DNA of 64,000 bases from Halobaculum sp. MBLA0147 (GTDB lineage Archaea; Halobacteriota; Halobacteria; Halobacteriales; Haloferacaceae). Made by a program: the position numbers and the translations under genes. The notes under the pieces were generated by a model. It searched no databases and had not been told where the DNA came from. It worked only from the letters and a program-made list of their open reading frames with translations. This document shows positions 2,848-8,655 of this stretch, piece by piece. The DNA is taken from assembly GCF_041361345.1 (NCBI RefSeq), contig NZ_JBGKAD010000001.1:1674001-1738000 (forward strand), in the 5' to 3' direction. The stretch's first letter is position 1, and each line of letters opens with the position of its first letter.

Positions 2848-3549
2848 ATGCTGACTAAAGTCGTGTCGGGTTACTGGTGGCGTCAGTTTCGGCGACTATC
2901 CGAGAACAGAGAACAACTGTTCGCGTTCAGTTGTCTGAGTACCAATCAAATCTGGCAGCAAGGACAATTACCGGACGAGAGACGCGAAGAGATATCACAG
3001 AGAGGGCAGGATCTGATGCGAGAACTGCTCCCCGAGGGACTGCGTCAGCGTCGAAAGCAGAGTAACCACGACACAGACGAAGAGTACGTTCAGAACGTAT
3101 TGTTTGAGGGCGACAATCTGACCCTACCGTTCGTCGCACAACACTTGACCGACAACATCACTGGCGTCTCGTGTGAGACAGAGAGTCAAAACACTGCTTC
3201 GGAGCCCGATATCGTCGTCTCGAAGAACGGTGTCGAGACGGCGAAGCTGGAGGTCAAACGAACTGTGAGCAGCGGGAACGTCTCCGACTACGTCACACAG
3301 TTCACAGCGAAGGACTGGCACGAGAGTGAGAAGTCGACTCCCTCGGTCTTGGTCATCTACTTCCCACTCATCTGTGAGACACCGGCGTGGCGCGCACAGA
3401 AGCTGGTCCGGGGGTACCAGAGTCTGATCGAGAGGGAACCGAAGTGGAACGAGGATTGGATGTACGTCCGGACTATCCCAGCACCACTCGAAAGTGGCGG
3501 CCAGTTCGGCCCACTGGAAACGACGGAGAATCTCGTCCGTGAGTTGTGA
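2848..3549 (+). CDS. Putative PD-(D/E)XK nuclease-like protein of a two-gene island
   Basis: A 233-residue soluble protein that I do not recognise as a named family. The central region has an arrangement like the PD-(D/E)XK nuclease core: P120-D121 in SEPDIVVS, then L134-E135-V136-K137 on the next predicted strand (LEVKRT), followed by a hydrophobic strand (PSVLVIYFPLI). The N-terminal third is helical and rich in Q/R/E. Composition differs from neighbours: fewer acidic residues, more Q, N, S and lower GC, which suggests recent transfer. An AT-rich CATATTA lies only 15 bases before the ATG, so the start is uncertain. It is followed closely by a YwgA/Panacea-like gene. Nuclease activity is an inference from three residues. 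Confidence 0.6.
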   Translation: MLTKVVSGYWWRQFRRLSENREQLFAFSCLSTNQIWQQGQLPDERREEISQRGQDLMRELLPEGLRQRRKQSNHDTDEEYVQNVLFEGDNLTLPFVAQHLTDNITGVSCETESQNTASEPDIVVSKNGVETAKLEVKRTVSSGNVSDYVTQFTAKDWHESEKSTPSVLVIYFPLICETPAWRAQKLVRGYQSLIEREPKWNEDWMYVRTIPAPLESGGQFGPLETTENLVREL

Positions 3550-3593
3550 ATGGCACCACCGGATTCTTATCCTGCGAAGGGCTATCAACAGGT

Positions 3594-4103
3594 ATGACCG
3601 AAGCCGACACGCACAGTAGCTCCCTCGAAGATCTCGACCAGACGGAGTCACAGCTCCTCCGGCTGGTGGCGGGGTCTTCGGGGCCGGTTCGCGGTCGGAC
3701 GAAGCTGATGAAACTCGGCTTCTTCGGGGAGTTCTACGACCGCGACAACGACGGTCTCCGCTCGACGGAGCGTGTCGGCGCGTTCGACGACTTCGTGATC
3801 TACGACCACGGTCCGTTCAGTAGGGACCTGATGGAGGCGTTCGACCGTCTCAAGGACCGTGGGTTACTCGACGAGCAGACGGAGTTGACGTTCAGAGGGA
3901 ATCGCCGAAACGACGTGTCGCTGACTGATCGGGGAGAACGAGTCGTCGAGCGTCTCGATACGGACACCGAGACACGGGACATCGTCGAGCGGTTCGACGA
4001 CTACAGTGCCACGGAAGCCGAGAGTGAGAGTCTGGAACTCCTCGGCATCGGGCGTCACGAAAAAGACGAGTACCGTCTCATACACGTCTCGGAGATCGTC
4101 TAG
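3594..4103 (+). CDS. YwgA/Panacea-like (SocA-related) protein, putative partner of the nuclease-like gene
   Basis: A 169-residue protein with the pattern seen in YwgA and Panacea/SocA (DUF4065) proteins: a helical stretch RTKLMKLGFFGEFYD, then FVIYDHGPFSRDLMEAFDRL (where the family has Y-GP-S), then a GLL strand and a C-terminal helical part. Panacea domains serve as antitoxins in many toxin-antitoxin pairs; YwgA-like proteins also occur in defence contexts. A longer version from GTG 3546 would overlap the previous stop, but a TATA-like TTCTTAT at 3565-3571 sits about 26 bases before ATG 3594, so a separate leaderless transcript is more likely. Family assignment is by pattern only. Confidence 0.62.
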   Translation: MTEADTHSSSLEDLDQTESQLLRLVAGSSGPVRGRTKLMKLGFFGEFYDRDNDGLRSTERVGAFDDFVIYDHGPFSRDLMEAFDRLKDRGLLDEQTELTFRGNRRNDVSLTDRGERVVERLDTDTETRDIVERFDDYSATEAESESLELLGIGRHEKDEYRLIHVSEIV

Positions 4104-4116
4104 CGGGTGAACGTTC

Positions 4117-4530
4117 TCAGTCGACAGACCCCTCGCGGCGCGCCGCCTCCCGTCGGCCCACGAGTCGCCGTCGTGTCAGCCACGCGGTCGTCCCGCCGAC
4201 GAGCGCGCCGGCCGTGTTCGCGAGTTGGTCGAGCAGCGAGAACGATCGCGTCGCGAGTGGGAGTTGCCCGACTTCGAGCGCCAGCCCGTAGCCGGCCGCC
4301 AGCGCCACCGCGAGCGCGATCCGACGGGGCTCGCGCCCGACGGCCCACACGGCGACCGCGCCGAGGGCGGTGTAGCCGGCGAAGTGGAGGTGTTTGTCCG
4401 TCACGACGGGGATTCCCGGACCCGTCCCGGGCGGTCGTGGCCAGAGTGACGCGACCGCGAGGAGGAGCGCGACGACCACGACACCGACACGACTCACTCG
4501 GCGGACGCGCTGCGGGTTGACGAGCGACAT
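4117..4530 (-). CDS. VanZ-like family membrane protein
   Basis: A 137-residue protein with three to four predicted membrane helices. It keeps the VanZ-like signature: D45-K-H-L-H in the first block (DKHLHFAGYTALG) and, in the last block, E86, Q89, R95, D101 and N105 (EVGQLPLATRSFSLLDQLAN). In bacteria VanZ is linked to teicoplanin resistance; haloarchaeal members have no known role. The ATG at 4530 is chosen because the reading frame upstream is Arg-rich and not protein-like. It is convergent with the YwgA-like gene, 13 bases away. Confidence 0.82.
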   Translation of the reverse strand: MSLVNPQRVRRVSRVGVVVVALLLAVASLWPRPPGTGPGIPVVTDKHLHFAGYTALGAVAVWAVGREPRRIALAVALAAGYGLALEVGQLPLATRSFSLLDQLANTAGALVGGTTAWLTRRRLVGRREAARREGSVD

Positions 4531-4730
4531 CGTCGCCAGTCTGGCGGCCACCGGACTAACTCCTCCGGTCGCACTGCGATCCACTCCCGACCATCGCGTA
4601 GCGTCCACTCGCCGCAGTCGGCCGCGAACCACCCGACTCCGTCGACCATCCGGCGAAGGTCCCCCGAGAGAATCAGAATCGGTAGCGACCCGATCAGATT
4701 TATGTGTCGGAGGCGCGAGCGTCCGGACAG

Positions 4731-6140
4731 ATGCCGTCACGCGACTCCGATGGACCGAGTCGGTTCGCGGTCGTCCTCGCGGTTCTCCTCCTCGGGCTCG
4801 CGGCCACCGCGCCGGTGTTCGCACAGGAGACCGGCACGGAGACCGCGACGAGCGCGAGCACGGAGACCGCCGGCGACGCGTCGGTGGTGGTGGTCGACGA
4901 CGACGGCGGGGCGGACTACCGGACGATCTCCGCCGCCGTCGCGGCCGCACAGCCGGGGACGACGGTCCGCGTACTGAAGGGGAACTACACGGAGGCGGTC
5001 GTCGTCAACCGGAGTATCACGCTCGTCGCGCCCGACGGCGCGCTGTTGTACGGCGGGGGCGACGGCGTGACGACCGGGATCACGATCACCGAGGGCGCCG
5101 CGCCGACGATCCGCGGGTTCACACTCGTCGACTACCGGATCGGCGTAGACGCACGCGGCTCCAGCGGCGCCTGGTCGCTACAGGACGTCGCGATCGAGGG
5201 TGCCGACAACGTCGGCGTGTACGCCGCGGCGTCGACGGGCGACTGGAGCGTCTCACAACTCACGGTGACCAACACGACCGGCGTCGCCGTGGGTGCGTTC
5301 AAGTCCAGCGGGAACTGGAGTGTCACCCGTGCGACGGTCCGGAACACGCGTGGTGTCGGGATCAACGCACGCTTCGCGAGCGGGAACTGGCGTGTCCGGA
5401 ACGCCGACGTCCGGAACACGACCGCCGGCACGACGATCCCGGCCAACTGGAGTGGCACCGCGATCTACGCGGGGAACGCCAGCGGGAACTGGACGGTCGG
5501 CGCCTCCGTCTTCGGCAACAACGACGACCCCGTGATCGACGCGACGAACGCCGATCCGGCCGGGAACGCGACCGGTAACTACTGGAACGGCGGCGTCCCG
5601 ACCGACGGCGACTGTATCGGGGCCGTCGACTGCGGTGATCCGCTGAGTACGCCGCCGGTCGACTTCGGCGACAACACGCCCGCCTACCAGCCCGAGGCAC
5701 CTGGCGGGAGTGGGCTCCCACTCGTCCAGGTCGCGGCCGGCATCGTCGGGGTGCTGGTGCTGCTCGGTGGTGGGTACCTCGTCACACAGACAGTCGGCGC
5801 GGACACGCTCGTCGCCACGCTGGAGGGGCTCGTCGGGAGTCTCCTGGCGGCGGTCGGCGTCCTGGACGGCGGCGGTGGCAACCGGATCATCGCTCTCTCG
5901 AACGAGGACCAGGCGAGTGTCACCTGTCGCGTCCAGTGTCGTACCAACGACGGCGTGCAGTTCCAGTACGACCTCACGCTCGCGAGCGGCGAACAGCGCG
6001 AGGCGCCGGAGCTCCCGGCGAGTGGTCCCTTCGAGATCACCGTCCAGGTGGGTGACGTCGACGTGACCGAGACGTTCGAGAGTGCGACCGACGTGATCGT
6101 CCGCGTCGTCTCGAACGACGCCGAGGTCGTCGCCGCCTGA
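4731..6140 (+). CDS. Secreted right-handed beta-helix protein with membrane anchor and internal domain
   Basis: A 469-residue protein. Residues 12-31 form a signal peptide ending APVFA. Next comes a pectin-lyase-like beta-helix start (DYRTISAAVAAAQPG..V.V..GNYTEAV) and at least five coils that each carry a SGNWSV-type motif (SGAWSL, TGDWSV, SGNWSV, SGNWRV, SGNWTV) with regular spacing. A membrane helix (about 327-350) precedes a cytosolic beta-rich domain of about 110 residues. The outside part is probably displayed at the cell surface. ATG 4731 is favoured over GTG 4704 because the TATA-like GATTTAT (4697-4703) is about 28 bases upstream. No polysaccharide-lyase active site can be assigned. 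Confidence 0.75.
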   Translation: MPSRDSDGPSRFAVVLAVLLLGLAATAPVFAQETGTETATSASTETAGDASVVVVDDDGGADYRTISAAVAAAQPGTTVRVLKGNYTEAVVVNRSITLVAPDGALLYGGGDGVTTGITITEGAAPTIRGFTLVDYRIGVDARGSSGAWSLQDVAIEGADNVGVYAAASTGDWSVSQLTVTNTTGVAVGAFKSSGNWSVTRATVRNTRGVGINARFASGNWRVRNADVRNTTAGTTIPANWSGTAIYAGNASGNWTVGASVFGNNDDPVIDATNADPAGNATGNYWNGGVPTDGDCIGAVDCGDPLSTPPVDFGDNTPAYQPEAPGGSGLPLVQVAAGIVGVLVLLGGGYLVTQTVGADTLVATLEGLVGSLLAAVGVLDGGGGNRIIALSNEDQASVTCRVQCRTNDGVQFQYDLTLASGEQREAPELPASGPFEITVQVGDVDVTETFESATDVIVRVVSNDAEVVAA

Positions 6141-8435: not shown

Positions 8436-8645
8436 GGTACCGCCACCACACCGCTCCGCCACCGCATCCGCACCGCTCCACAACCGCCACCGCTCCGCCG
8501 CCGCACCGCTCCGCCACCGCACCGCTCCGCCGCCGCACCGCTCCGCCACCGCACCGCCACCACCGCACCGCTCCGCCGCCGCACCGCTCCGCCACCGCAC
8601 CGCCACCACACCGCTACCGCACCGCTCCGCCACCGCCCTGCACCG
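8436..8645. repeat. C-rich imperfect tandem repeat
   Basis: About 210 bases made of variants of CCGCACCGCTCCGCCA, with short units CACCGCTCCG and CCGCCACCGCA alternating. The plus strand is almost free of A-runs and has many more C than G, an extreme strand bias. It follows the terminator-like hairpins and precedes the stop of endonuclease V, so it would be transcribed as 3' untranslated RNA of that gene unless termination occurs first. Open frames through it have no protein-like sequence. It is not a CRISPR array: there are no unique spacers. Confidence 0.85.
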
Positions 8646-8655
8646 CACCGAAGGT

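What the first reader, a model, noticed from the sequence alone, without database searches (positions are those of the whole stretch)
2848..4103. Candidate two-gene defence or toxin-antitoxin island
A protein with a P-D...E-V-K nuclease-like core sits just before a YwgA/Panacea-like protein, in a stretch with lower GC and different amino-acid use, between conserved housekeeping genes. Panacea proteins often neutralise toxins, and YwgA-like proteins occur near defence genes. The pair is not one I recognise.
Basis: partly seen in the sequence, partly recalled or inferred. Interest (0 to 1): 0.62.

Follow-up and report, generated by a model that had tools for sequence, protein, structure and literature searches.

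The report
Haloarchaeal nuclease with Panacea-like partner
Two neighbouring genes in a salt-loving archaeon look like a DNA-cutting-enzyme relative and a small protein that probably keeps it in check; the pair is rare, comes and goes between related genomes, and in one relative only the suspected cutter has been deleted.

Summary
ORF1 (2848-3549, 233 aa) and ORF2 (ATG 3594-4103) are real genes in a low-GC patch (0.55 and 0.61, window 0.70). ORF1 belongs to a narrow family with four known copies: two in this genome, one in a congener, one in Natronococcus jeotgali. All four have invariant E112, SE-x-D121 and E135-x-K137-R. The model's best PDB fold match is the restriction enzyme EcoT38I, and one member weakly matches HSDR_N over the motif. 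It is most likely a PD-(D/E)XK nuclease. ORF2 is a Panacea relative (profile-profile probability 97%), and its model's best PDB match is the antitoxin domain of DarG. All four ORF1 copies have this gene directly downstream. At a second locus the congener has lost about 650 bp of the nuclease and kept the partner; other congeners lack the pair at one locus or the other. The same partner family also pairs with DUF6338 membrane proteins and TrmB-PLD regulators. The best reading is a toxin-antitoxin-like module in which the winged-helix protein blocks the nuclease. Toxicity, substrate and binding are untested. It is not in a defence island here, and no relative was found in plasmids.

The parts
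2848..3549 (+). ORF1, 233 aa, predicted PD-(D/E)XK nuclease (putative toxin or effector)
   Evidence: Four-member family with invariant E112, S118-E119-x-D121, E135-x-K137-R138; AF2 model pLDDT 75.9, best PDB match EcoT38I at E 1.3e-3, prob 0.99; HSDR_N sub-threshold match over the motif in the G203 member
3181..3261 (+). Catalytic-core region, residues 112-138: E...SEPD...ExKR
   Evidence: Invariant motif residues in alignment A2; strands 107-111, 122-126, 129-138 in the model
3594..4103 (+). ORF2, 169 aa, Panacea/DarG-CTD-type winged-helix protein (putative antitoxin); alternative start GTG 3546
   Evidence: hhalign to DUF4065/Panacea set 97.3%, E 2.6e-11; AF2 model pLDDT 89.7, best PDB match DarG in the DarTG complex 7yk3; conserved start in homologues
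3564..3569 (+). TTCTTA promoter-like element exactly 30 nt before the ORF2 ATG (possible separate promoter for the partner gene)
   Evidence: Same hexamer at the same distance in the diverged second copy; function inferred

Best explanation
The two genes form a toxin-antitoxin-like module. ORF1 is a small metal-dependent PD-(D/E)XK nuclease, probably acting on DNA, that is harmful when free. ORF2 is a Panacea-superfamily winged-helix protein that binds ORF1 and keeps it inactive, perhaps by filling its nucleic-acid groove as the DarG C-terminal domain does to DarT. The nuclease would be released when the partner is lost or overwhelmed, for example during infection. Shown here: the gene pairing, the conserved motif, the family relationships, and gain/loss including a nuclease-only deletion. 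Inferred: toxicity, DNA substrate, direct binding, trigger.
For: ORF1 never occurs without ORF2: 4 of 4 copies at three unrelated chromosomal sites, same order and strand, gaps of 41-70 bp where measured. Motif invariant across 24-61% identity. Fold matches include many PD-(D/E)XK enzymes: EcoT38I, Mus81, XPF, EcoO109I, BspD6I small subunit, P. abyssi repair nuclease. HSDR_N weak match. ORF2 related to Panacea antitoxins and structurally closest to DarG's toxin-binding domain; a sister YwgA-like protein hits the PADLOC DarG and PDC-M19A models. Asymmetric loss: at locus 2 the congener G251 keeps the partner gene intact (88.6% nt identity) but only the first ~35 nt of the nuclease remain. Patchy presence: G392 lacks the pair at locus 2, G393 at locus 1. 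All nuclease-linked partners form one clade (100/99), including the orphan.
Against: No toxicity, binding or cleavage data. The nuclease fold match is weak (E about 1e-3, TM 0.32) on a four-sequence alignment. PadR/MarR regulators match ORF2 almost as well as DarG by E-value, so a purely regulatory role fits too. Only four copies are known, two of them in one genome. Upstream-toxin order is less usual for type II toxin-antitoxin pairs. A single nuclease deletion is one event.
Confidence: 0.55

Rival explanations
1. A stand-alone restriction-like or modification-dependent defence nuclease that cuts foreign DNA, with ORF2 as an accessory or specificity protein rather than an antitoxin.
For: Closest fold matches are type II restriction enzymes and HSDR_N/REase_I models; the Natronococcus copy sits by an integrase and a GajB-like helicase; patchy distribution.
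Against: No methyltransferase was recognised among the neighbouring genes examined at the three sites (ORF lists and selected Pfam scans, not exhaustive); an accessory protein would not be expected to outlive its nuclease; the partner belongs to an antitoxin superfamily.
Confidence: 0.22
2. ORF2 is a PadR/MarR-like transcriptional repressor of ORF1 or of other genes, and acts on DNA rather than on the protein.
For: PadR and MarR proteins are the bulk of sequence and fold matches to ORF2; the family also pairs with TrmB-type regulators.
Against: The invariant K39, L40, F42 and G72-P73 region aligns with Panacea, while the PadR sequence match covers only the later part of the profile; best TM-score is to DarG (0.50 against about 0.37 for PadR); DUF6338 partners are mostly convergent genes, awkward for operon autoregulation.
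Confidence: 0.13
3. An ordinary chromosomal DNA-repair or processing nuclease with a helper protein, not toxic and not defensive.
For: Chromosomal, beside housekeeping genes; purifying selection (dN/dS about 0.16 for ORF1, though synonymous sites are near saturation); weak matches to XPF/Mus81 and to a Pyrococcus repair nuclease.
Against: Found in 3 of 392 genomes of the order, absent from congeners at the same sites, lost by deletion, GC below its partner and, in this genus, well below the window's in every copy.
Confidence: 0.07

Closest known systems
PanAT toxin-antitoxin systems (Panacea, DUF4065, PF13274; Kurata et al. 2022, PMC8832971)
   Same: Two-gene module; small antitoxin-superfamily protein sharing the K-L-x-F ... 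YGP-[FY]-S core, profile probability 97.3%; one antitoxin family with several partner types.
   Different: ORF2 itself is far below the PF13274 cut-off (second copy E 0.2, congener ORF2 E 0.32); a PD-(D/E)XK toxin was not mentioned in the passages of the two Panacea papers I read.
DarTG, C-terminal toxin-binding domain of DarG (PDB 7yk3)
   Same: Best structural match of ORF2 (prob 1.00, TM about 0.5); in DarTG this domain blocks a DNA-acting toxin by ssDNA mimicry (title of Deep et al. 2023, cited in PMC12170906).
   Different: No macrodomain in ORF2, and ORF1 shows no sign of being an ADP-ribosyltransferase.
EcoT38I/EcoO109I type II restriction endonucleases
   Same: Top fold match; D-x13-E-x-K catalytic pattern of the PD-(D/E)XK type.
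   Different: No methyltransferase recognised beside the pair; E-value only 1.3e-3; no sequence similarity detected.
SocAB (Caulobacter)
   Same: SocA is a Panacea-domain antitoxin.
   Different: SocA works through proteolysis of SocB, according to PMC8832971; ORF1's resemblance to SocB was not tested.

Membership tests
PD-(D/E)XK nuclease superfamily | Conserved D ... (D/E)-x-K motif on adjacent strands | tested here: met
   D121, E135, K137 invariant in four homologues; strands 122-126 and 129-138 in the model
PD-(D/E)XK nuclease superfamily | Characteristic alpha/beta core fold | tested here: inconclusive
   Top PDB match EcoT38I, prob 0.99, but E 1.3e-3 and TM 0.32; several other PD-(D/E)XK proteins among the top 50
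PD-(D/E)XK nuclease superfamily | Sequence-profile membership in a curated family | tested here: not met
   No Pfam, NCBIfam or PADLOC match over cut-off; HSDR_N 18.2 bits against cut-off 25.1 in one member
PD-(D/E)XK nuclease superfamily | Metal-dependent cleavage of nucleic acid | not testable with these tools
   Needs a biochemical assay
Panacea (PF13274) | Match over the curated cut-off | tested here: not met
   ORF2 has no Pfam match to PF13274; copy 2 E 0.2 and the congener's ORF2 E 0.32. A family sister, L063, just reaches 25.7 bits
Panacea (PF13274) | Detectable homology to Panacea proteins | tested here: met
   hhalign 97.3%, E 2.6e-11 for one comparison; control comparison with ORF1's alignment gave 0.1%
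Type II toxin-antitoxin module | Two adjacent co-directional genes that co-occur | tested here: met
   4 of 4 copies
Type II toxin-antitoxin module | Antitoxin can persist without the toxin, not the reverse | tested here: met
   G251 locus 2: partner intact, nuclease deleted; no lone nuclease seen. One event only
Type II toxin-antitoxin module | Toxicity of one gene, neutralised by direct binding of the other | not testable with these tools
   Needs co-expression and pull-down
Type II restriction-modification system | Cognate methyltransferase next to the nuclease | tested here: not met
   None recognised among neighbours at the three sites in ORF inspection and selected Pfam scans; not an exhaustive scan
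YwgA family | Similarity to Bacillus YwgA | not tested

The most novel reading that the evidence does not exclude
Haloarchaea carry a second branch of the Panacea/DarG winged-helix antitoxin superfamily that has taken at least three separate partner types (a PD-(D/E)XK nuclease, DUF6338 membrane proteins and TrmB-PLD proteins), each a different toxin-antitoxin-like or defence module; the nuclease version is inhibited by mimicry of its nucleic-acid substrate.
Probability: 0.3. Interest if true: 0.72.

Novelty: new variant of a known kind. Interest (0 to 1): 0.5.

Why it matters
If true, it adds a nuclease toxin family to the promiscuous Panacea/DarG antitoxin network and extends that network through haloarchaea, where (to my knowledge) few toxin-antitoxin systems are characterised. 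The three partner classes and a natural nuclease-only deletion make the idea directly testable in Haloferax volcanii with small genes.

Tried and rejected
ORF1 searches that found nothing: viral contigs, plasmids by tblastn (the G203 protein's plasmid hits are only an IS630 end over its first 28 residues, so its start is probably later than the ORF start), GTDB contigs with the profile (a second scan returned only Natronococcus jeotgali itself), PDB by sequence, PHROGs, 335 genomes of the phylum (nothing beyond this genome). Weak single hits dismissed as chance: WDR36 beta-propeller, FRG, ceruloplasmin, short profile hits at positions 54-125 in a few genomes, and a stop-ridden G052 match that falls in an unrelated 539-aa ORF. 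A methyltransferase-partnered restriction system: none recognised beside the pair. Recent acquisition of the window copy: not supported, since the congener has the pair at the same place; but synonymous divergence of the pair (pS 0.70 and 0.43) exceeds that of its neighbours (0.20, 0.34), which could be allele replacement or relaxed codon bias in a low-GC gene; not resolved. Complex prediction of ORF1 with ORF2 was not possible with the tools.

Full report
Observation. The window is a haloarchaeal chromosome segment (G000:C1:1674001-1738000). ORF1 (2848-3549, +, 233 aa) and ORF2 (to 4103, +) follow a PHO4 phosphate transporter and a 2Fe-2S ferredoxin gene and precede a VanZ-like gene on the other strand. 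GC is 0.55 and 0.61 against 0.70 for the window. ORF2 probably starts at ATG 3594 rather than GTG 3546, which overlaps ORF1's stop: homology among copies begins there, and a TTCTTA hexamer sits exactly 30 nt upstream of the start both here and in the second copy of this genome. That suggests, without proving it, a separate promoter for the partner.

How common is it. ORF1 has no curated-family match. In 392 genomes of the order, ORF1 was found in three: this one (two copies), a congener G251, and G203. A profile search of 335 genomes of the phylum found only this genome. Plasmids and viral contigs gave nothing. So the family is narrow.

ORF1 as a nuclease. The three homologues share 24-61% identity with ORF1, yet E112, S118, E119, D121, E135, K137 and R138 are invariant; the spacing D-x13-E-x-K is of the PD-(D/E)XK kind. 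An AlphaFold2 model from four sequences (pLDDT 75.9, pTM 0.76) places the motif on adjacent strands. Its best PDB match is the restriction enzyme EcoT38I with DNA (E 1.3e-3, prob 0.99, TM 0.32). Mus81, XPF, EcoO109I, the BspD6I small subunit and a Pyrococcus repair nuclease, all of this superfamily to my knowledge, are among the next fifty, mixed with unrelated proteins. The G203 member has a sub-threshold HSDR_N match across the motif (18.2 bits, E 0.0024). I regard the superfamily assignment as likely (about 0.85), the substrate as unknown.

ORF2 as a Panacea/DarG-type protein. A 20-sequence alignment matched a three-sequence DUF4065/Panacea alignment with hhalign probability 97.3% over 67 columns containing the K-L-x-F and Y-G-P-[FY]-S core; the control comparison with ORF1's alignment gave 0.1%. 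One sister protein of ORF2's wider family (L063, genome G393) just reaches the Panacea cut-off and also matches PADLOC's DarG and PDC-M19A models; ORF2 itself does not reach the Panacea cut-off. The ORF2 model (pLDDT 89.7) matches DarG in the DarTG complex 7yk3 best (prob 1.00, TM 0.50), followed closely by PadR and MarR regulators. The DarG domain inhibits DarT by ssDNA mimicry according to the title of Deep et al. 2023, cited in PMC12170906; I could not read that paper.

Pairing and loss. Every ORF1 copy has an ORF2 homologue immediately downstream (4 of 4; gaps of 44, 41 and 70 bp where measured). At locus 1 (after the ferredoxin gene) this genome and G251 have the pair (61% and 75% identity); in G393 the ferredoxin gene is followed by unrelated sequence. 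At locus 2 (after a 2-oxoacid ferredoxin oxidoreductase gene) this genome has the pair, G392 joins the flanking genes directly, and G251 keeps an intact partner gene but only about the first 35 nt of the nuclease (32 of 35 identical). About 650 nt are deleted, and what is left reads as an 18-codon ORF; the exact 3' breakpoint is uncertain. One event, but it is the asymmetry expected if the nuclease is the harmful half. In Natronococcus the pair is next to a phage-type integrase, an IS630 transposase and a GajB-like UvrD helicase, that is, mobile or defence-like surroundings; in the window there is no such context.

The wider partner family. Of 46 relatives of ORF2 examined, 27 lie next to DUF6338-like membrane proteins (mostly convergent), 10 next to TrmB-PLD proteins (tandem, overlapping), 4 next to ORF1-type nucleases, and 5 have none of these, one of which is the G251 deletion case. 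In a maximum-likelihood tree the nuclease-linked proteins plus the G251 orphan form one clade (100/99) and the TrmB-linked ones another (100/97); label changes are far fewer than in shuffles. This is how a partner-swapping antitoxin family would look, but the DUF6338 and TrmB-PLD partners are not known toxins. A paper search combining DUF6338, DUF4065 and haloarchaea found only the Panacea paper itself, which does not mention DUF6338.

Judgement. A toxin-antitoxin-like module with a PD-(D/E)XK effector and a Panacea/DarG-type inhibitor is the best reading (0.55). The main rivals are a restriction-like defence nuclease with an accessory protein (0.22) and transcriptional control by ORF2 (0.13). 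Nothing here measures toxicity, cleavage or binding.

Noticed in passing
L046-L053 and L008-L034 (e.g. L051:2449-3959, L053:3129-4544): Panacea/YwgA-like proteins recur next to DUF6338-like membrane proteins, mostly as convergent genes, in many haloarchaea; looks like an undescribed two-gene system.
   Followed up: partly
L016, L017, L018, L020, L023, L031 (e.g. L018:714-1911): Another branch of the same family follows, with overlap, a TrmB HTH plus PLD-like protein; one clade in the tree.
   Followed up: partly
L052:3857-4671: The DUF6338-like partner in this genome (G000:C1 near 951,400) is split into two ORFs in different frames, while its Panacea-like neighbour is intact.
   Followed up: no
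L055:2548-11560: In Natronococcus jeotgali the pair sits by a phage-type integrase, an IS630 transposase, a GajB-like UvrD helicase and two unknown large proteins (592 and 345 aa).
   Followed up: partly
window 8440-8650: GC-rich tandem array (units of about 16 or 27 bases, CCGCCACCGCACCGCT); a similar-looking stretch may occur in the congener's L047 near 4525-5061.
   Followed up: no
L045 (G251 locus 2), upstream of 3770: The orphan partner gene carries TTCACA where the paired copy has TTCTTA at -30, possibly a promoter change after loss of the nuclease.
   Followed up: no
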